A stretch of 47,397 nucleotides of DNA, from assembly GCA_902825965.1 (NCBI GenBank), contig CADEDA010000004.1, positions 1 through 47,397 of the forward strand, in the 5' to 3' direction. Shown piece by piece: positions 29,094-45,240 of this stretch. The notes beneath the pieces were generated by a model. It saw only the letters and a list, made by a program, of their open reading frames with translations. It was not told where the DNA came from and ran no database searches. The position numbers and the translations under genes were made by a program. Every line of letters starts with the position of its first letter. Position 1 is the stretch's first letter. Source of the DNA: an uncultured Gemmatimonadota bacterium (lineage in GTDB: Bacteria > Gemmatimonadota > Gemmatimonadetes > Gemmatimonadales > Gemmatimonadaceae).

Positions 29094-29121
29094 CATCGGC
29101 ACTTAGAAGAAGTGGGGGGTG

Positions 29122-29135
29122 GGCACACTCGATGC
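29122..29135 (+). promoter_or_regulatory. Sigma-54 (-24/-12) promoter element before the RHS gene
   Basis: GGCACACTCGATGC has GG-N10-GC spacing with GGCAC at -24 and ATGC at -12 (consensus TTGC). Transcription would start near 29147. That position excludes the far-upstream GTG 29119 as start of the RHS gene and fits TTG 29191 or ATG 29227. Confidence 0.6.
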
Positions 29136-29190
29136 TATGAGGGAAGCGGAAGTCGACCCCCATCGTCAACGAGAGATTCCGGAGGTTCCC

Positions 29191-32100
29191 TTGGTTTCGG
29201 CCCGCTCCTTCTCCGCGCCCACAGTGATGCGTGCTCTCAGGCGCTTGGGTCTCTGGACCGTGCTTGTCACGCTGCTGCAGGCGACGCTGCCCGGGACCAG
29301 CAACGCGCAGTTCTGCGCGGACAACGATCCGTGTCCCACGAATCAGGCCCCAGTGGTGAGTCTCGTTGGGGATGCGACGACAGCGCAAGCGAGCTACACC
29401 TTCGCGGTGTTTGCCAGTGACGACGGGATGCTCGCACCGGCGAGCCTTCAGCTCTGGTTGAACGGGGCACTTCAGACCTCATGGGGACAATCCCCCCTCT
29501 CATCGCCGTGGACCACACACTCCACGCCCGGCCAAGTGACACTATCCGCAGGCACGAACACGCTCATCGTTCAGATGTGTGAGACGCGCTCGTCGCCGCT
29601 GTGTGGAGCGGACACACTTGTTGTGACGTATGCGCCCCCGCCCACCCCTCCCGCCACGGCAGCTCCGGTGCTCTCGCTTGCGCAGCGGAATGACGGTCGC
29701 CTGTTGGACGGGTGTGCGACTTGCTCGACGATGACGGCAAGCTATGCCACCCCGGAGTTCTACCTCAACGGCTCTCCCCGGAGCGTGGTCGTCCGGTACT
29801 CCTCCGAGCAGGCAAATCCGGTCGGCTATGTAGAAGTGGACGCGCACGTATGGGCGCAGACCGCCCCTACGCGGCTCGGCATTCGCTTGGAGCGCAATGG
29901 ATCGCCCCTCACGCTCGCGAACGGTGGGACCGAGAGTTTCGTCGTCGGGGGTCTCGGAACCTATCGGCTCGCGGCCTGGTTTGACGCGTGGAACCTTCCG
30001 AGCGACTCCATTGACGTGAGCGTCATCGTCACTGCGTACTACGGCCCCGCCGGCGCGCCGACAGACATCAAGTCAGACACACTCGACCCCGTGCGAGTGC
30101 TCGTTCACAACGCACGCCTGAGTCCGTACGGTCGCGGATGGACGGTCGCTGGCGATGCGCGTCTGCACAAACAGCACAATGGAAACCTCGTCGTGAGCGA
30201 CGGGGCCGGCAGCATGGAGTACCACCAGCTGGCGGGCTGCGGCGGGTCGCCGTGGACCTGCTCCTACACGCAACCTGCCGGCACCGTGGCGACCATCGCC
30301 CGCGTCTTGGTGCCGACGGGGCTACTCAATCCGCCCGACACTGTTTGGGTACGCGACAACAAAGACGGCTCACACACGTACTGGACGAACGTCGGGCTGT
30401 TGGATAGCCTGGTCGACGCGTACGGGAACACCACGACGTTCGAGCGGATGACCTCAGGTGACGTGAACCGACTCTATCGCATAAAGTTGGCAACCGCCGT
30501 TGGTGCGACCGCAATCACGAAGTACGTCACATTTGGCTATGACGGTGATGGCAAGCTGAGCTCGATCACCCTGCCCGATGGTCGCGCCTCGACGTTCAGC
30601 GTCACCAGCGGTTCAGGCGGGACGCTCAACGCAGTGGTCGATCCAGATGGGGTCACGGCACTGAGCGCAACCTACTCGTTCGGTTTCATGATGACGGTCG
30701 CCGGCCGCAACGCGAAGCCAGACTCGCTGACCTACGATGGCCACTGGCAGTTGTTCACGCGCCGCGGTCCGGTGGTCGCGATCGAGGGAGGAACCAGCCG
30801 CGATTCACTCGCCATCTACTCACTGCGTTCGCGCCTCTTGTCCAACAATGCGACCAGCGCGACGGGTTCGCCGATGGCAAACGCGACGCTCGCCGACAGC
30901 GCCATGATGCGACTGAGTGGGCGCAACGGCACATCAACGGAGCTCTGGAGTGCGGTTGGCGGCGGTGCGCGGCTCGTGCGTTCGAAGACCTCGGCCGGGA
31001 AGGTTGAGGAAGCACGCACCACGTTCGATGCGGCCCATCTCCCGGTGCTCACGAGTACGACGGGCCAGGCCGGACAGAGCCTTGAATGGTCGGGGGGTCG
31101 CTTGGTCAAGACCGCGGACGTGGCGACGGGCCTCAGCACGTCGTACCACTACGACGGCAGTGGTCGCATCGACTCGATAACGGTGAACGGTGTACGGATG
31201 GTGCGGCACTTCTACACGGGTTCGTCCTACGCCCCGGATAGCAGTCGATCCGACACGGCAAACGTGATTCGCTACACTCATGATGCTCGCGGACGTCTGC
31301 TCACCGTCAAGGACGCAAACAATGTGACGGTCACGCACACCTACGAGACGACGCACGGGAATCTGGCGTCCTCGGTGCGCTCCGGGACCGGCGTCCCGAC
31401 CACTAGCGCCGCGTTCACGTACGACGCGAGTGGCAGCGCAATCACGACGACCGACCCGCTCGGGCGAGTGTTCACCAACACGTACAACAATGTGGGACGC
31501 GTCACGCAGGAGCAGGGACCGCTATCGACGTCGACGACGCGATCCTACAACGACGCAACGGGTACGTACGGGCTCACGGATCCCAAGGGACAGCAGTATA
31601 CGACGCACGTAAATGCCGCCGGTCTCGCCACGTCACAGGTCGATCCCACCGGTGCTCGCGACAGCGTCACCTATGATGCAGACGGACGCATCGCTGTGTC
31701 GCGTAGTCGACGCGGAGATGAGGTACGCTTTACGTACGATGGCTTCGGTCGCGTTATCACGCGAACCCACAAGATCTCCGGCCAGACCACTCCGGATACA
31801 ACCAGTTTCGCCTACGATTCGCTTGGGAGATGGGTCGCCGCACGCAACGCGGAGAGTATCGACACGCTGACAGTCGATGCGGGTGGACGCGCGTCGCAGG
31901 CCGTCAGTCGCCGTGGCGCGGTGCGCCTCAACGTAGACTACGGTTACACGGCGGGGACGCTGTCCAGTCGGATCGTCGTCGGCGGAACGCCCAGCAGCGG
32001 CTCGGCCTGGTCCGACACACTTGGCCTGGCGTACGACGTCCAGCGCAATGCAAACGTGTTCCGTGACTTCGGCGGGAAGGACACCAAGTCCCTGCTCGAC

Positions 32101-33813
32101 AAGTCAGGACGTCTCGTGACCGACACATTCCCGACGAGCTCGGTCGCGGCTAGCAAGGTGCGGCGCTCGACCAGCTACTCCGCGACCGGCGACGTCATTG
32201 CGCAGACGTTCACCAGCAGCGGCGACTACCTGCTCTCGCGCACCTATGGCGACCACGATGCCCTCGGGCGGATCGGTTCGATCTCACGACAGAACGCGCC
32301 CGCGCCAATCGTGCGGCTCCACGAATACGACGCCTTGGGGCGCTTGGTCACGTATCAGGACAAGCAGACGTACGATTCCGTGTACTACTTCCAGACGCCG
32401 TGGGACCCGTACGGCGACTGTCCCGGCTGCTTCATCCTGGACTCCACGGTGACGACCGTGACGAATGTGCTCCGGTCGGCGACGTACGTGTATGACAGCG
32501 TCCACAATCGTCGTGATCTGAACTCAACCATCGCCACAGGCAACCGGGTCACGGCGATGGACAGCTGGGGAATCGCCTACGACGCGGCAGGCCACATCAG
32601 CCAGCGATGGAAAGGGGCTGATACGCTTACCTACACGTGGAACGGCTTGGGTCAGCTGATTCAGGTGGTCGCACCGGGGGGTGCGACAACAACGTATGGC
32701 TACGATGGGTTCGGGCGTCGCGTGCGCAAGACCGTGAATGGGGACACGACACGCTATCTCCTGGATGGCGATCGGGTCATGGCGGAGACCGACGGCGTGG
32801 GAGCCGTGCGTGCACTCTACTCGTACTTCCCCGGTGTGGACCGGCCGCACGCGATGCTGCGCAACAACAAGCGGTACTATTTCGCGCAGGACGTGCAGGG
32901 CAACATCATCGGCCTCATGGACTCCGTCGGTCACGTGGCACAGACCTACAACTACACGCCGTACGGGGAAGCGGTGGACGACATGGGGGAATCGGTCGTC
33001 AATCCGTATCGCTACAAAGGGCGGGAGTGGGATGCAGAGGCGCGGCTGTACTACATGCGGGCGCGGTACTACGATCCGATGCTGGGACGGTTTCTCTCGG
33101 AGGATCCGATCGGGCTGGCAGGGGGGATCAATCCGGCCATGTTTGTGGACGGGGATCCGGTGAACTTGTACGATCCCGACGGCCTCACGCCGTGTCCACG
33201 CGTGAATACGACCTGTCCGTGGGGGCTTCCCGCAGCCGTGTCGTCAGTTGCGCCGCGACGGACACTCAACCAGCATATCTTTCTCCTTGGTGCTTCGCGC
33301 CCAGGATTCACATCCTTCCTCGGAAACGATGCGCACACTGAGGACCACTTCAGGTTGTCTGGTCCCCCAGGGCTACTCGAGTCGCTCAGCGCTGACTGCA
33401 AGGATGCGCTAAAGAGCGTGCTCGTCAGTATGGCGTTCGATGCGATCGGGTTCGGTGCACTCAAGCGGATTTGGTCGACACTACCTGACGTTCTGGCCAC
33501 CACTTACCGAGGCCTGGATAAGAAGTTGCTAGAATTCGGCAAAGCGGCGGTGCAGTCGAAGGGAGTGTTTTTGCCACGAGTCAATAAGGCCACGCGGCTC
33601 GGATTCGACCATGATCTTGCTGCCATCGTTCGGTGGGGCGAGGATGTCGCGGGGGCGGGAATGCCCCCCGCAACCTTTCAGGGATCTGAAGCCATGCTGT
33701 CGGGCGGCGACCTTGGCATGGCGGTGGCTTCGCTAGCACTTGGTTTCATTCCTGGCGGAAACAGTGTAGTAGCCCTTGGGGAAGCCTTGTATGAATGTGG
33801 GCTCCGTAGCTAG
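29191..33813 (+). CDS. Secreted RHS/YD-repeat protein (polymorphic-toxin-like)
   Basis: About 1540 residues from TTG 29191, which has GGAGG five bases upstream; ATG 29227 is the alternative and both keep the Sec leader (LGLWTVLVTLLQATLPGTSNAQ). An N-terminal Cys-rich/Ig-like part (NQAPVVSLVGD..., GCATCSTM) leads to many YD repeats (YGNTTTF, YDGSGRIDSI, YDADGRIAVSR, YDGFGRVITR). The RHS core end is RYYDPMLGRFLSEDPIGLAGGINPAMFVDGDPVNLYDPDGL. Beyond it, about 210 residues form an unrecognised tail with no familiar nuclease or deaminase motif, and its DNA is less GC-rich than the core. RHS shells enclose C-terminal toxins. There is no PAAR or VgrG partner, and the gene follows the T2SS operon, so export by Sec then T2SS is inferred. 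A small membrane protein follows as immunity candidate. Confidence 0.88.
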   Translation: MVSARSFSAPTVMRALRRLGLWTVLVTLLQATLPGTSNAQFCADNDPCPTNQAPVVSLVGDATTAQASYTFAVFASDDGMLAPASLQLWLNGALQTSWGQSPLSSPWTTHSTPGQVTLSAGTNTLIVQMCETRSSPLCGADTLVVTYAPPPTPPATAAPVLSLAQRNDGRLLDGCATCSTMTASYATPEFYLNGSPRSVVVRYSSEQANPVGYVEVDAHVWAQTAPTRLGIRLERNGSPLTLANGGTESFVVGGLGTYRLAAWFDAWNLPSDSIDVSVIVTAYYGPAGAPTDIKSDTLDPVRVLVHNARLSPYGRGWTVAGDARLHKQHNGNLVVSDGAGSMEYHQLAGCGGSPWTCSYTQPAGTVATIARVLVPTGLLNPPDTVWVRDNKDGSHTYWTNVGLLDSLVDAYGNTTTFERMTSGDVNRLYRIKLATAVGATAITKYVTFGYDGDGKLSSITLPDGRASTFSVTSGSGGTLNAVVDPDGVTALSATYSFGFMMTVAGRNAKPDSLTYDGHWQLFTRRGPVVAIEGGTSRDSLAIYSLRSRLLSNNATSATGSPMANATLADSAMMRLSGRNGTSTELWSAVGGGARLVRSKTSAGKVEEARTTFDAAHLPVLTSTTGQAGQSLEWSGGRLVKTADVATGLSTSYHYDGSGRIDSITVNGVRMVRHFYTGSSYAPDSSRSDTANVIRYTHDARGRLLTVKDANNVTVTHTYETTHGNLASSVRSGTGVPTTSAAFTYDASGSAITTTDPLGRVFTNTYNNVGRVTQEQGPLSTSTTRSYNDATGTYGLTDPKGQQYTTHVNAAGLATSQVDPTGARDSVTYDADGRIAVSRSRRGDEVRFTYDGFGRVITRTHKISGQTTPDTTSFAYDSLGRWVAARNAESIDTLTVDAGGRASQAVSRRGAVRLNVDYGYTAGTLSSRIVVGGTPSSGSAWSDTLGLAYDVQRNANVFRDFGGKDTKSLLDKSGRLVTDTFPTSSVAASKVRRSTSYSATGDVIAQTFTSSGDYLLSRTYGDHDALGRIGSISRQNAPAPIVRLHEYDALGRLVTYQDKQTYDSVYYFQTPWDPYGDCPGCFILDSTVTTVTNVLRSATYVYDSVHNRRDLNSTIATGNRVTAMDSWGIAYDAAGHISQRWKGADTLTYTWNGLGQLIQVVAPGGATTTYGYDGFGRRVRKTVNGDTTRYLLDGDRVMAETDGVGAVRALYSYFPGVDRPHAMLRNNKRYYFAQDVQGNIIGLMDSVGHVAQTYNYTPYGEAVDDMGESVVNPYRYKGREWDAEARLYYMRARYYDPMLGRFLSEDPIGLAGGINPAMFVDGDPVNLYDPDGLTPCPRVNTTCPWGLPAAVSSVAPRRTLNQHIFLLGASRPGFTSFLGNDAHTEDHFRLSGPPGLLESLSADCKDALKSVLVSMAFDAIGFGALKRIWSTLPDVLATTYRGLDKKLLEFGKAAVQSKGVFLPRVNKATRLGFDHDLAAIVRWGEDVAGAGMPPATFQGSEAMLSGGDLGMAVASLALGFIPGGNSVVALGEALYECGLRS

Positions 33814-34088
33814 CTCACGACAGAACGCCGTTGTGACATCGCCGAACCAGTATGCGTTGACAGCGAGGTCTCATGCTGGAATCTCGAAGGTACGACGCCC
33901 ATGATCATCGTGAGTCCGCGACCGCACCTTGCTGCTGCTCGACCCGCAGGTTTAGAGCGCCAGATGGGAGAGCGCCGTGTGGATCGGTGTGAGGGGGGCG
34001 AATTGGCACTGCTGTTCGTCCGCGGTCTCCAAACCCGGGCCGCTCGGTGCCTCAAACAACGCCGAAAGCGGTCAACCCCGTGAACGCT
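33814..34088. other. Spacer between RHS gene and small membrane protein, nothing recognised
   Basis: 275 bases with a short open frame starting at 33901 that has no ribosome binding site or recognisable motif. It could be a decayed tail or immunity gene. Confidence 0.4.
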
Positions 34089-34499
34089 ATGAGACAGGGC
34101 GACATTAAGTGGGCAGTACGCCGAACGCTCGGCTTCTTCGTGTTCGTGGCGCTAATCAGCAGCCTCGCTGAGGTGCTGAGCCGCGGTGCGGTATCTCAGA
34201 AGTTCAAGCTGCCGCTTCCACTGATCCTGCTCTACTACGGCGCCTCTGCACTGTTCGCGGGACTCTTGATCGGTCTGCTACGCGACCAGCTGTGGCGGAA
34301 GCTCGTTCGGGCATCCATCGGCGTCCTCACCACCGCGATGCTCCTTCTGCTCTTCATTCTTTCGCGAATGAGCGCGGATGGGGTTCGGCCCTCCTTCATG
34401 GGGTACACTTTGATCGCGGCAGTGGCGCTCGTACTTGGAACTGTCGCGGGGCTACAGTTCGAAGCGCCAGCGTCGAGGGAGACGAGAAAGGAAGGGTGA
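34089..34499 (+). CDS. Small four-helix membrane protein (candidate RHS immunity protein)
   Basis: 136 residues from ATG 34089. Four hydrophobic segments: FFVFVALISSLAEVL, LPLILLYYGASALFAGLLIGLL, ASIGVLTTAMLLLLFIL and YTLIAAVALVLGTVAGLQF. I recognise no family. Its place about 275 bases after the RHS tail is where immunity genes of polymorphic toxins lie. A membrane location would suit a tail that acts on the inner membrane from the periplasm. Function is an inference from position only. Confidence 0.6.
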   Translation: MRQGDIKWAVRRTLGFFVFVALISSLAEVLSRGAVSQKFKLPLPLILLYYGASALFAGLLIGLLRDQLWRKLVRASIGVLTTAMLLLLFILSRMSADGVRPSFMGYTLIAAVALVLGTVAGLQFEAPASRETRKEG

Positions 34500-34662
34500 A
34501 CGAAGCAGCCTTCGCCTCCATAGACGGTGAGCTTCGCGACTGCCGCTGCGCCTGTCACTTAGAATCGAGTGGACCGCGATCGCTAGGGCGTGGTCCCCCG
34601 AACTGAGTTCCCATCCTTTGGTGAAGACTGCTAGTGAGGGTCCCCCCGTCCGCACTCCAGTT

Positions 34663-35504
34663 CTATGCTGACAACTGAGCGGGTGGTGTAGTGAAGGTCT
34701 GGGCGAACTCGAACGGGGTCAAGGGGTGGCAGGCTTCGTGCGGCCGGGCGGTGTTGAAGTCGCGGCGGTACCGCTCGACGTGAAACTGCGCGTCGAGTAG
34801 CGACCGGAACCAGTGTTGATTGAGGCATTCATCGCGGAACTTCCCGTTGAAGCTCTCGACATCGCGTTCTGCACCGGCTTCCCGGGTTGAATGAACTGCA
34901 ACGCGATCCCGCGATCCGCGGCCCACGCATCAAACGCGCGACTGCGAAACTCACTGCCGTTATCGAGCGACAACCGGGTGGGTTGATCGCGCCCGGTGAT
35001 CACCGCCTCGAGGGCGGCAATCACGGCGGTGCTCGGCAAGCTGTACGCCACGGTGATCGCCAAGCACTCGCGGGTGCAACTGTCAATGAGCGTGAGACAC
35101 CGAAAGCGCCGGCCGCTGCGCAGTTGATCGCTCACGAAGTCGAGACTCCAGGTCTCAGTCGGTCCTGTCGCGATCGGCCGCGGCACGCGCGGCACGGCGA
35201 GTCGTTTCCGCTCGCGCCGGCGTACCGCGAGGCCTTCGAGGCGATAGAGCCGCACGACGCGCTTGTAGTTCACGAGCCAGCCAGCGCGCTGCAGTCGCCA
35301 GTGTAAGCGAGGCACGCCCCACCGCGGATGCTCGGCCGCGAGCGTCACGAGCTTCTCGCGCAGCGGCGCGTCGAGGACCGGCCGCTGCGGCACGAAGCGC
35401 ACCACCGAGCGTTCGAAGCCCAGCGCCCGGCAGGCGTATCGCTCGCTGATCGGATACCGCGCCTGAACCGCCGTGACCACCGCCCGGCGCTCGCCGGTGG
35501 TCAT
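34663..35504 (-). pseudogene. IS3-family transposase OrfB, frameshifted
   Basis: The rve-type catalytic domain is split. The first part has a typical HTH_21-like YPISERYACRALGFERS, GVPRLHWRLQRAG, and the first two catalytic Asp in TETWSLDFVSD and TRLSLDNGSEF. After FIQPGKPVQNA the frame shifts by one base near 34862, and the expected continuation VESFNGKFRDECLNQHWF with the catalytic Glu lies in another frame, ending at TAG 34663-34665. A single T seems lost (GCG-AT for GCG-TAT). The shift separates the D-D from the E, so the protein is inactive unless it is a sequencing error. Confidence 0.85.
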
Positions 35505-35767
35505 GATCCTTTTCCCAGCACGTCCTTCAGGATCTGGAGATTCAGCGCCTGGTCGGCGACGAGACGCTTGAGGCGCGCGTTCTCGTCTTCGAGGGCCTTC
35601 AGTCGCTTCGCGTCGCTCACCTGCAAATCGCCGTAGCGCTTCTTCCATGCGTAGAACGTCTGGCGGGAGACGTTATGACGCCGCATCAGCTCGGCGGGAG
35701 CCGCACCGGCGGCATGCTCCTGCAGAATCGCGATGATCTGCTCGGTCGAAAACCGGGACTTCCTCAT
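35501..35767 (-). CDS. IS3-family transposase OrfA
   Basis: 88 residues: helix-turn-helix RFSTEQIIAILQEHAAGAAPAELMRRHNVSRQTFYAWKKRYG followed by a leucine-zipper helix (LKALEDENARLKRLVADQALNLQIL). The end DVLGKGS lies on a slippery A-AAA-G run near 35512, allowing a -1 shift into orfB as is usual in this family; orfB's own ATG (35504) also overlaps the orfA stop. Confidence 0.92.
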   Translation of the reverse strand: MRKSRFSTEQIIAILQEHAAGAAPAELMRRHNVSRQTFYAWKKRYGDLQVSDAKRLKALEDENARLKRLVADQALNLQILKDVLGKGS

Positions 35768-35851
35768 CTAAGCTCCTTGGTCGCCTCGAAGACGACCGAT
35801 GGGGCTCAGGAGTCAAGCATCAACTGGAGGGAGTGGCGGGGGGACCCTCAC

Positions 35852-37243
35852 CAGATTCCCAACGACCCGTACGGTGACTGCCCGGGGTGCTTCATCCTCG
35901 ACTCGATCATCCATACAACGGTCGATACCCTGAACTACAAGGCGTACAGCTACGACCTTGTGCACAATCGCACCGACGGGGGTGCCACGGTAACGACGGG
36001 AAATCGGATGACGGGAATGGACGGTTGGACCATTACCTATGACGACGCGGGATTCATCCGCAAGCGCAAGAAGGGTGCGGACTCGTTGGCGTACACCTGG
36101 AACGCGCTAGGGCAGCTCACGAAGGTAGTGGCGCCAGGATACACCGTGACCTACGGTTACGACGCCTTCGGCAATCGGGTGCGCAAGTCCGTAAACGGCG
36201 ACTCAACGCACTACATCGTCGAAGACGGAGCGGTGTTGGTGGAGCTGAGCGACTCCTGGCAGCCAGTCGCGAAGTACACGTACTACCCGGGCGTCGACCA
36301 ACCACACTCGATGGTGCGGGATGGTAAACGGTACTACTTCCTGCAGGACGCGCAGGGGAACGTGACGGGGGTCGCGGATTCGGGTGGGGTGCTGAAGAAC
36401 ACGTACCACTACTCCCCGTACGGAGAAGCGCTTTCTGGGACTAGCGAAACCGTGGCGAATCCGTACAGGTTCAAGGGGCGGGAGTGGGATGCGGAGGCGC
36501 GGCTCTACTTCATGCGGGCGCGGTACTACGATCCGCAGATCGGGCGGTTCGTTTCCGACGATCCGATTGGGCTCGAAGGGGGCATCAATCCCACGGCGTT
36601 CGTTGGCGGAGAACCAGTCAATCGTGCTGACCCCTCGGGTCTGCTCTGTCAGCTCGCTTGGGACATCCATAGCTGGACCTCAACGGGGGAGGTCTTCTTC
36701 GTAGGCAACTTCCGCTTCGAAGGAAGCTGTGGGCACCTGTTCGCTGAAGGAGGAGCGCCCGGCTACTCGCTTGGATCCCGATTCGGCGGTTGGTGGCACG
36801 GACTTCTTGAGGAGGAGAAGCGTGCGGCGAGTGTGGCAAGCGTGGAGCAATCGTCGGAAGGGCAGGCTTCCGCGGCCAGACAGCCTACCCGTATGCAATG
36901 CAGAGAGGCAGGGATGGCTGCCTTTCGCGGCCTATGGGTGGCACACGCTCTGGGAGGCACCGGCGTGGCTGGCGCAGGCAAGGGGGCCAGCTACTTCTCT
37001 GAAGCCATCAAGGAGCGCGCGGCTGGAAGTCTGCGCAAGGCCCGGACACTCCTTCGCGAGCCAGGTCAGTACGTATCATTCAAGGATCTCGCAAGGACGA
37101 CTCAGACGATGTCCCGCGCTGCGTCATGGGCTAGAGCGGGAATCGCCACAGCGAGAGCAGGTGTCGTTGTTGGGGGATTTGCCATAGGGTTCGCGATCGG
37201 AGTCGACGCGATGTGCATGTACGATGTCAACTACTACTCTTAG
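35852..37243 (+). pseudogene. Displaced RHS C-terminal fragment with a different tail
   Basis: The reading frame begins at the right end of the IS with QIPNDPYGDCPGCFILDS and has no start codon or ribosome binding site of its own. Its first 265 residues are closely similar to the C-terminal part of the RHS protein at 29191, including GREWDAEARLYFMRARYYDPQIGRFVSDDPIGLEGGINPTAFVGGEPVNRADPSGL. Beyond that, the tail of about 195 residues is unrelated to the tail of the intact gene and ends in Ala/Gly-rich hydrophobic helices (ARAGVVVGGFAIGFAIGVDAM). This is the classic orphan RHS-CT arrangement, a silent store that can swap tails by recombination. The IS removed or replaced its 5' part. Confidence 0.85.
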
Positions 37244-37559
37244 TCTTGCCTCAGCGTACGCAGTGGATTTCTCGCATGGAGGGATTGTGCAGCTCTTCGT
37301 GACTCGAACCAAGCTGAGTCGAAAGGTGCGAGTCGTGGCTGGTGGCCTAGCCATCCTCAGCGGGTGGGCTGCGCAGAATGGGCCTCTGGACGGCTCGAGG
37401 CTGGCACTACTTCTCAACTGGGGCCAAGTGGTGGTTGCATTGGTCCTTGGACTAACGGCGATCGGGTGGCGTCTCCACACATCGTGGGAAGGGAAGGGTC
37501 GGATTCCCATCGGAACGAAGCACAGGGACGCGAGGAATCGCGAGGATCCCTGGTTCTAA
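37224..37559 (+). CDS. Small membrane protein (candidate immunity for the displaced RHS tail)
   Basis: 111 residues from ATG 37224, overlapping the end of the RHS fragment by 20 bases; starts further in are possible. Two hydrophobic segments (VRVVAGGLAILSGWAA and ALLLNWGQVVVALVLGLTAIGW) are followed by a basic tail (KGRIPIGTKHRDARNRED). No family is recognised. Tight coupling to the orphan tail is the argument for an immunity role. Confidence 0.5.
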   Translation: MSTTTLSLASAYAVDFSHGGIVQLFVTRTKLSRKVRVVAGGLAILSGWAAQNGPLDGSRLALLLNWGQVVVALVLGLTAIGWRLHTSWEGKGRIPIGTKHRDARNREDPWF

Positions 37560-38299
37560 GTCGCGCCAAGGTTCCCGAGGGCTCCCCCCATTGAGAGGCT
37601 GAAGCTGTGTCCAGGATGGCACGATGTTCAACGGAATCTCGTCGGCGCGCATTTCGGTGGCTCGGCAAGCACGTCAAGGGGCGGCCCTCGCGCTGGGCGC
37701 CGGTGTAGTCGATTGCCGTGAAGGTCGGGCGCTGTTAAGGTCGGGTGCTCGGCCGAAGCGCTGCCGGACTGGCGGGCTAAGGCTGAGGCCCCCCGCCGAT
37801 CCTTCCAGTTGATGATCACCTTCCATACCCCTCCGGCCGTCATCGAGATGATCAGAAGTCTAGACCGAGAAGTCGCGATTGACGACCGAGCAGCTGAGGG
37901 CGATTCTGCAGGAGCCTGCGGCGCGGAAGCGGCACCACAATGTCTGTCGCCAGACCTGTGACCCGGTGACCCGGTTCGAGTTCACCAAGGCCTTCATGAC
38001 ACCACCCGCTCGGCGGTTGGGGGGCCTGCACGCCGGTTTGCACGATGCTACGTGTAGCTGAACTGCTGGGCACGGCCGTCATCCTCTGCTGCACCGTAGG
38101 CGTGTTCTGGTCCAGAGACCGAATCACATCTCGACATCGTGGTTTGAGAATCGATCAGAGTGATGCCCCTGCTTTCCCGGTCAGCTGACGATCGAGACGT
38201 GAAGCGCGTTGTGGGCCTTGTGGTCCTCGGCCCTACTGTTGGAGCAGCTGTGACGTTCTCCTGAGTCGTCGGTCGACGGCAATCGCCTCCCCTGAACAC
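37560..38299. other. Decayed intergenic DNA, no intact gene
   Basis: About 740 bases with no supported gene. An IS3 remnant is at 37853-38030 (separate entry). The rest has short open frames without ribosome binding sites or motifs and base composition lower in GC than neighbours. It is probably debris of past insertions beside the RHS cassette. Confidence 0.55.
37853..38030 (+). pseudogene. Internally deleted IS3-family remnant
   Basis: A frame reading TTEQLRAILQEPAARKRHHNVCRQT resembles the OrfA start (STEQIIAILQEHAAG...HNVSRQT) of the element at 34635. It is followed directly by DPVTRFEFTKAFMTPPARRL, like the OrfB end (LTPFEFAQTFTTPPAQ). The middle of the element is missing, so this is a deletion relic in the opposite orientation. 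Confidence 0.7.
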
Positions 38300-43134: not shown

Positions 43135-45147
43135 TCAGCCCCGCACCGCCCGCACCACCGCAGCGGCCGTGATCCCATACTCCTCATACAACCGCTGATA
43201 CGGCGCACTCGCCCCGAACGTCTCGATCCCGACGACGGCTCCGTCGAGCCCCACCCAGCGCTGCCACGACATCGGATGCGCAGCCTCCACCGCCACGCGC
43301 CTCACGCCCGCCGGCAACACGGCATCGCGATACGCTGCATCCTGCGCCGCGAACACCTCCATGGAGATCATCGACACCACCCGCGTCGCGGTCCCTGCCG
43401 CCGCGAGCTCGGCCTGCGCCTTGAGTGCGATCTCCACTTCCGAGCCGCTCGCCAGGATCACGGCCTTCACCGCTGCGCCGGCCGGCGCATCCTTGAGCAC
43501 GTACGCACCCTGGTGCGCCCCGCTCGCCGCCGCGTGCGTCGTCCGGCCGATCAATGGCAGCTTCTGCCTCGTCAACACGATCGCGCTCGGCCCCGTGCGA
43601 TAGCGCAGCGCCATGCGCCACGCTTCGGTGGTCTCCGCAGCGTCCGCGGGCCGCAGCACCAGCAGCCCGGGAATGCAGCGCAGCGACGTGAGATGCTCCA
43701 CCGGCTGGTGTGTGGGGCCGTCCTCGCCGAGTCCGATGGAGTCGTGCGTGAATACATAGATCACCTGCTGCTTCATCAGTGCCGCGAGGCGGATCGCGGG
43801 GCGCATGTAGTCGGCGAACACGAGGAAGGTGCCACCGTACGGGATCACGCCGCCGTGCAGCGCCATGCCGTTCATGATGGACCCCATGCCGTGCTCACGG
43901 ATGCCGAAACGGAAGTTGCGGCCGCTGCGCTTGCCGGCGGAGAACACGTCGGCGCCCTTCACATCCGTGAGGTTGGAGCCGGTGAGGTCGGCCGAGCCAC
44001 CAATCAACTCCGGCAACACGTTCGCCAAGCCGTTGATCACCACACCGCTCGCGGCACGGCTCGCCACGTTGCCATTGCCGGCATCGAACTGCGTGAGCGA
44101 CTTCTCCCAACCCGCCGGGAGGTCACCGTGCCAGCGACGCCCGAGCTCCTTCGCCTCATTCGGATGCGCCTTGGTGAATCCCGCGAACGTCTTCATCCAC
44201 TCAGCCTGCAGCGCCACGCCGCGAGCCTTGGCCTCGCGCCAATGCGCCAGCGCCGCGTCCGGCACGAAGAACGGCTCGCTGCTCGGCCAGCCGTACGCCT
44301 GCTTGGTGAGCGCGATCTCGTCCTTGCCGAGGGCCTCGCCATGGGCCTTGGCGGTGTCGGCGCGGTTGGGGGAGCCGTAGCCGATGATGGTCTTGGTGCA
44401 GATCAGCGTCGGACGCTGGGTGTCGGCCTTGGCCTCAGCGATCACGCGATCGATCGCGGCCTGGTCGTTCACGTCGGCGAGGTGCAGCACCTGCCAGCCG
44501 TAGCTCTCGAAGCGCTTGGCGACATCGTCGCTCGAGGCCAGCGAGACGCGGCCATCGATGGTGATGTTGTTGTCGTCCCAGAAGCCGATGAGCTTGCCGA
44601 GCTTCTGGTGGCCGGCGAACGACGCCGCCTCGTGCGAGATGCCTTCCATGAGACAGCCGTCGCCGGCGATGAACCACGTGTAGTGGTCGATCACGTTGTG
44701 GCCATCGCGATTGAACAGCGACGCAAGGTGCGCCTCGGCGACCGCCATGCCGACCGCATTGCCGATGCCCTGGCCGAGCGGGCCGGTGGTGGTCTCGACG
44801 CCGGCGGTGTGGCCGACCTCCGGGTGGCCCGGTGTCTTGCTGCCCCACTGCCGGAAGTTCTGGATCTCGTCCAGCGAGAGGTCGTAGCCGCTCAAGTAGA
44901 GCGTGGAGTAGAGCAGCATCGACGCGTGGCCCGCCGAGAGCACGAAGCGGTCGCGGTCCTTCCAGTGCGGATCGGCGGGATTGTGCTTGAGGTGCCGCGT
45001 GTAGAGCGCATACGCGAGCGGCGCGAGGGCCATGGGCGTGCCGGGGTGGCCCGACTCGGCCTTCTGCACGGCGTCCATCGACAAGGTGCGGACAGTATCG
45101 ATCGCGAGCTTCTGCAGCTCGGGCGAGACTGGGGCGACTGCGGTCAC
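43135..45147 (-). CDS. tkt: Transketolase
   Basis: 670 residues, full length. Motifs: [15 protein letters not shown], the thiamine diphosphate site [19 protein letters not shown] with [16 protein letters not shown]-like [15 protein letters not shown], and the C-terminal [17 protein letters not shown] (reads [20 protein letters not shown]) of the pyrimidine-binding domain. It moves two-carbon units between sugar phosphates in the pentose phosphate and Calvin cycles. No sugar-phosphate gene is nearby. It converges on the DUF4143 gene, 31 bases away. Confidence 0.96.
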
Positions 45148-45240
45148 AGGGTAGTGCTCCGGCGGATGATCGCCCGCGTGGCGTCGCGGGCACGGAGGAC
45201 GCGCATGCTTTGCGGCAGGGGGCAGCGTCCCGCCGGAAAG

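What the first reader, a model, noticed from the sequence alone, without database searches (positions are those of the whole stretch)
35852..37559. Orphan RHS C-terminal fragment with a second tail and its own small membrane gene
The fragment starts without a start codon at the IS edge, repeats the RHS core end of the intact gene and then diverges completely. Only the core is shared, so it can replace the tail of the main gene by recombination. The overlapping two-helix membrane protein is a likely immunity gene kept active against former siblings.
Basis: partly seen in the sequence, partly recalled or inferred. Interest (0 to 1): 0.68.

Follow-up and report, generated by a model that had tools for sequence, protein, structure and literature searches.

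The report
Truncated RHS toxin tail with membrane partner
An insertion element sits where the front of an old RHS gene used to be, leaving only its last part plus a small membrane-protein gene; this is probably a leftover weapon-and-antidote pair of a kind known elsewhere, and not a spare tail recently swapped out of the neighbouring gene.

Summary
A headless RHS fragment (35852-37243) begins exactly at the end of an IS3-type element (34634-35851), keeps 262 residues of core, then has a 200-residue tail unlike that of the intact gene upstream (29119-33813). A 111-codon, two-helix membrane ORF overlaps its stop codon.

The displaced-sibling reading fails its own test. The shared cores are 62% identical in protein and 64% in DNA, 73% of comparable four-fold sites differ, and the longest exact block is 25 bp. 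Fragment B is closer to the RHS gene of another species (73%) than to its neighbour. It is the 3' end of an old paralogue.

The wider comparison added something. Many Gemmatimonadota RHS tails share one layout: about 200 residues, early cysteines, then two cysteines 98-133 residues apart with the last 2-9 residues from the end. A small polytopic membrane gene often follows. Several relatives carry headless copies behind an intact gene, with much fresher shared cores (80-92% DNA identity).

My best reading is an orphan RHS tail/immunity module, possibly ionophore-like, as in CDI systems. Toxicity, immunity and expression are untested, and tail B has no detectable relative in the collections searched.

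The parts
29119..33813 (+). RHS-A, intact gene (1564 aa from GTG; likelier start ATG at 29227 giving a Sec signal peptide); RHS core ends about 33183
33187..33810 (+). Tail A: 208 aa, cysteines at 3, 10, 71 and 204 of the tail
34089..34499 (+). 4-TM membrane protein, likely partner of tail A (in-frame GTG start also at 34047); member of a family found downstream of 4-Cys tails in relatives
34634..35851 (-). IS3-type element with imperfect terminal inverted repeats, single full copy in the genome, no target-site duplication at its edges; orfA 35501-35767, orfB 34719-35648 (frame-shifted near 34900)
35852..36637 (+). RHS-B headless core fragment starting exactly at the IS end; DPxG-(19)-DPxG autocleavage-type motif at 36560-36640
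36641..37243 (+). Tail B: 199 aa plus stop, cysteines at 2, 29, 86 and 191, hydrophobic C-terminal helices
37224..37559 (+). Small two-helix membrane ORF (111 aa), overlapping the tail-B stop codon; candidate immunity gene
37784..38011 (-). Remnant of a related IS3 element (two pieces), just after the module

Best explanation
RHS-B is the 3' end of an ancient RHS paralogue whose front 3 kb is gone; the IS3 element now sits exactly at the break. What remains is an orphan tail/immunity module. Proposed working: in the full-length gene the Sec-exported RHS shell enclosed the tail and cut it off at the DPxG...DPxG site (inferred from RHS family knowledge). The released 4-Cys, helix-rich tail acted on the cell envelope of rivals, most likely by inserting into the inner membrane like a CDI ionophore. 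The overlapping two-helix membrane protein blocked it in kin. As an orphan, the tail has no signal peptide and no native start, so at most the membrane protein is still useful. Shown: truncation at the IS, old core, tail layout, overlapping membrane ORF, recurrence of the layout in relatives. Inferred: toxicity, ionophore action, immunity, present expression.
For: Fragment abuts the IS inverted repeat to the base; no TSD. A-B core identity 62% aa / 64% nt, 4-fold sites 73% different, while B to another species' RHS (G128, L092) is 73% aa. The four cores form a 100/100 clade with unresolved order, and B's branch (0.19) is no longer than those of intact copies (0.15-0.30), so it probably lost its front late. 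G128's RHS sits directly beside the block that lies at window 43138-45240 and beyond, so the locus is syntenic. The Cys layout occurs in 13 of 61 tails against 1.3 expected in shuffles (maximum 7 in 2000); at least 2 TM helices downstream in 8/13 versus 5/46, Fisher p = 5e-4. The 4-TM partner family, searched back without reference to RHS, lands next to further RHS or 4-Cys tails in G014, G076 (twice), G065:C31 and G119. CDI ionophores have two-helix immunity proteins of 72-100 aa (PMC11630599), and orphan CT/immunity pairs are documented (PMC3150448).
Against: Tail B itself fails leave-one-out homology to the 4-Cys tail profile (245 of 300 shuffles score as high), and its membrane ORF is not a detectable member of the 4-TM family. 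Neither has a credible relative in 148 family genomes or 394 class genomes; the tail also has none in GTDB r220, IMG/VR or plasmid records. Some 4-TM family hits are not next to RHS genes. The AlphaFold model of tail B is unusable (pLDDT 34). No toxin domain is recognised.
Confidence: 0.6

Rival explanations
1. Displaced-tail model of the first reader: B is the former tail of the intact gene A, recently displaced by tail A, and can be swapped back through the shared core.
For: Position directly downstream in the same orientation; the same arrangement with 80-92% identical core DNA exists in G063, G030 and G039.
Against: A-B core is 64% identical in codon-aligned DNA with saturated four-fold sites; longest exact block 25 bp. 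RHS-A shows no breakpoint: its identity to C and to G128 is about even along its length up to the tail. The C1-C2 module is shared with G128, not with A.
Confidence: 0.12
2. Plain pseudogene debris: a headless RHS paralogue and its neighbour ORF, drifting without function.
For: No native start, no signal peptide, IS at the break, IS remnant on the other side; no conserved relative of tail or ORF.
Against: Frame fully open for 459 codons; the overlapping ORF is open and coding-like; core branch not accelerated. Orphan modules in other bacteria are known to keep working immunity genes (PMC3150448).
Confidence: 0.35
3. The 4-Cys tail is not a toxin but a membrane-seated part of the RHS protein (anchor or exporter contact), with the membrane protein as its docking partner.
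For: Hydrophobic, disulfide-capable tails paired with polytopic membrane proteins in the absence of any recognised toxin domain.
Against: Strong tail divergence right after the autocleavage motif (identity about 0.7 falling to about 0.2), and headless tail-plus-partner arrays, fit toxin/immunity cassettes better than a structural part.
Confidence: 0.15

Closest known systems
Orphan CdiA-CT/CdiI modules, with Rhs-CT/RhsI pairs as their RHS counterpart (Poole et al. 2011, PMC3150448)
   Same: Headless C-terminal fragment retaining some of the conserved region, no translation start, own small downstream gene, placed after an intact copy, sometimes disturbed by IS elements.
   Different: Here the shared region is old and divergent, the tail has no match in the collections searched, and function is untested.
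CDI ionophore toxins with two-helix CdiI immunity proteins (Halvorsen et al. 2024, PMC11630599)
   Same: Variable N-terminal part plus hydrophobic helical C-terminal part; small, very hydrophobic two-helix immunity proteins; strong polymorphism of both.
   Different: Delivered by CdiA, not by a Sec-exported RHS; no sequence relationship detected; five-helix bundle not demonstrated here.
RHS repeat proteins with DPxG...DPxG autocleavage (TIGR03696; P. laumondii Rhs1, PMC8636562)
   Same: Rhs_assc_core domain present (E = 1.2e-25), DPxG-(19)-DPxG motif, then a variable tail.
   Different: The fragment lacks the rest of the shell; the intact relatives here have Sec signal peptides, not the T6SS-type N-terminal region of Rhs1.
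Imm-CdiI / Imm17 two-TM immunity proteins (PMC3482391)
   Same: Two TM helices, small, next to a polymorphic tail.
   Different: No Pfam, NCBIfam or PADLOC match for 37224-37559.

Membership tests
RHS/YD-repeat protein, C-terminal core | Rhs_assc_core domain above curated cut-off | tested here: met
   TIGR03696 E = 1.2e-25, 89.8 bits against cut-off 32.5
RHS/YD-repeat protein, C-terminal core | DPxG...DPxG autocleavage motif before the tail | tested here: met
   DPIGLEGGINPTAFVGGEPVNRADPSG, spacing 19; cleavage itself not tested
Orphan Rhs-CT/immunity module | Headless CT fragment with own downstream small gene, after an intact copy | tested here: met
Orphan Rhs-CT/immunity module | Same tail found on a full-length gene elsewhere (common, not obligatory) | tested here: not met
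   no credible hit in family, class, GTDB r220, IMG/VR or plasmids
Orphan Rhs-CT/immunity module | Tail toxic and small gene protective | not testable with these tools
   needs bench work
Recently displaced tail of the neighbouring RHS gene | Near-identical shared core | tested here: not met
   62% aa, 64% nt, 4-fold sites 73% different
4-Cys RHS tail class of Gemmatimonadota (defined here) | Early Cys, Cys near 60-100, Cys within 10 of the end, 170-220 aa | tested here: met
   Cys at 2, 29, 86, 191 of 199
4-Cys RHS tail class of Gemmatimonadota (defined here) | Sequence homology in the C3-C4 domain | tested here: not met
   leave-one-out score no better than shuffles for tail B (245/300); borderline for A (26/300); clear for C (0/300)
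4-TM partner family | Match of the downstream protein to the family profile | tested here: not met
   37224-37559 not found by the profile; RHS-A's partner 34089-34499 is a member
CDI ionophore/immunity | Membrane depolarisation by the tail | not testable with these tools
   analogy only (PMC11630599)

The most novel reading that the evidence does not exclude
Gemmatimonadota carry an undescribed, fast-diverging family of Sec-exported RHS effectors whose disulfide-braced, helix-rich tails attack the inner membrane and are neutralised by dedicated small polytopic membrane proteins (a 4-TM family plus several unrelated small ones); the window's fragment is an orphan member of it.
Probability: 0.3. 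Interest if true: 0.6.

Novelty: new member of a known kind. Interest (0 to 1): 0.42.

Why it matters
The best-studied orphan CT/immunity modules come from enterobacteria. Here they appear repeatedly in a little-studied phylum, with a recognisable tail layout and membrane partners that none of the family libraries searched describes. If the pairs work as toxin and immunity, they would extend ionophore-type polymorphic toxins from CDI systems to Sec-exported RHS proteins, and would give testable pairs with no known homologue.

Tried and rejected
Recent displacement by tail A: rejected on core divergence and absence of a mosaic breakpoint. Tail-B relatives in G310, G408 and G238 (E about 1e-4): inspected, none is an RHS or 4-Cys protein. 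Class-wide hits to the 111-aa ORF (E 8e-5 to 1e-3): partial matches of about 40-80 residues inside much longer open frames, taken as chance hydrophobic similarity. Structure prediction of tail B: pLDDT 34, not used for any fold search. Only window and the search for related loci sequences were given to the structure tool, so its alignment was thin. An early coding-potential figure for the 111-aa ORF (-0.312) and the GC-by-position figure for it came from a frame slip and were discarded; the in-frame values are -0.030 for the whole ORF and 0.006 for the stretch past the overlap, against a null of -0.23 +/- 0.16. PADLOC and PDB sequence searches gave nothing useful.

Full report
WHAT IS THERE. 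The window is contig C4 of a 4.07 Mb genome. Its relatives are Gemmatimonadota; the closest named one is MAG JAIOPJ010000029.1, 'Gemmatimonadetes bacterium', which is G128 in the genome set. The region holds an intact RHS gene (A, 29119-33813), a 4-TM membrane gene (34089-34499), an IS3-type element (34634-35851), the headless RHS fragment B (35852-37243) and an overlapping small membrane ORF (37224-37559). A third, intact RHS gene (C) lies beyond the window at C4:55950-60587. The IS ends carry matching inverted repeats, and RHS homology begins on the base after the right-hand repeat. No target-site duplication is seen, and the element is single-copy in the assembly. The fragment has no start of its own at its edge: the open frame runs back into the IS antisense strand, and the next in-frame candidates are internal.

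HOW OLD IS THE SHARED CORE. Over 259 residues A and B are 62% identical in protein and 64% in codon-aligned DNA. Of 81 comparable four-fold sites 73% differ, and the longest exact block is 25 bp (blastn 68% over 603 bp). B is closer to the RHS of another species, G128 (73%), than to A or C. The four form one 100/100 clade whose inner order is unresolved; B's branch is not longer than those of the intact genes. Along its whole length A is about equally distant from C and G128, so A is not a hybrid that took a new tail onto B's front. G128's RHS gene sits beside the block found at window 43138-45240 and onwards in L005, so this is an old, syntenic RHS locus. B and G128 also share the short cysteine module after the core (CQL...C) before diverging. 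I conclude that B is the rump of an old paralogue.

THE TAIL. Tail B has no family match and no credible relative in 148 family genomes, 394 class genomes, GTDB r220, IMG/VR or plasmids. Comparison of tails from 179 family genomes shows a recurring layout: about 175-215 residues, one or more cysteines in the first 50, then C3 and C4 98-133 residues apart with C4 2-9 residues from the end. The pattern occurs in 13 of 61 tails against 1.3 expected by shuffling. It covers A, B and C of this genome and tails in G063, G025, G030, G039, G065, G073 and G140. Leave-one-out profile tests show that a core set, C included, is truly homologous. A is borderline and B is not demonstrable. So B shares the layout; shared ancestry of its C3-C4 domain is not shown.

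THE MEMBRANE PARTNER. A predicted protein with at least two TM helices lies within -60 to +250 bp downstream in 8 of 13 pattern tails and 5 of 46 others (p = 5e-4). Eight of these partners, including RHS-A's, form one 4-TM family. A search with that family alone, blind to RHS, found 20 of 179 genomes. Among places not used to build it, it landed beside RHS or 4-Cys tails in G014, G076 (twice), G065:C31 and G119, and beside a tail-like end in G042; other hits were not linked. B's partner is a different, two-helix protein with coding-like composition. This matches the two-helix immunity proteins of CDI ionophores (PMC11630599) in size and shape only.

ORPHANS ELSEWHERE. G063, G030 and G039 carry headless copies with 80-92% identical core DNA shared with a neighbouring RHS copy, and G023 has eleven orphan tails in a row, each keeping about 35 core residues, some with M23-peptidase or deaminase-like domains. 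So fresh tail exchange does occur in this family; the window's fragment is simply not an example of a fresh one.

MECHANISM. Shown: truncation at the IS, old core, conserved layout, overlapping membrane ORF. From RHS knowledge (PMC8636562): DPxG autocleavage would free the tail from the shell. Inferred: disulfide bracing in the envelope, membrane attack, immunity by the small protein, and a remaining role, if any, through immunity alone as in EC93 orphan modules (PMC3150448). I put 0.6 on orphan toxin/immunity module, 0.35 on mere debris at present, and 0.12 on the sibling-swap model; these overlap because a former module may now be debris.

VERDICT. Real and correctly located; ordinary in kind; the swap interpretation is not supported. 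The tail layout with membrane partners across Gemmatimonadota is the more interesting by-product.

Noticed in passing
L005 8951-13588 (C4:55950-60587), outside the window: Third RHS gene (C), intact, with a 4-Cys tail (homologous to the family) and a 132-aa membrane gene 29 bp downstream; a related IS remnant lies nearby at C4:61013-61071.
   Followed up: partly
L038 3789-17821 (G023:C2): Eleven orphan RHS tail cassettes in a row on one strand, each keeping about 35 residues of core; tails include an M23 peptidase, a deaminase-like domain, DUF4329 and a weak Tox-URI2 match.
   Followed up: partly
L079 4088-14225 (G063:C245): Intact RHS followed by two headless copies and several 4-TM family genes; the copies share core and C1-C2 module at 80-84% DNA identity, then diverge. 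A good natural case for tail exchange.
   Followed up: partly
window 34719-35648: IS orfB leaves the frame near 34900 (its usual ending, DVESFNGKFRDECLN..., continues in the frame of ORF 34663-34926), so the transposase is probably broken.
   Followed up: no
L088 6717-11643 (G065:C50): Two headless RHS copies with tails resembling metallopeptidases (HEASH / HEEAH) and no TM gene downstream.
   Followed up: no
L040 156-997 (G128:C21): Two small same-strand ORFs upstream of the intact RHS look like another tail-like/partner pair without a core.
   Followed up: no
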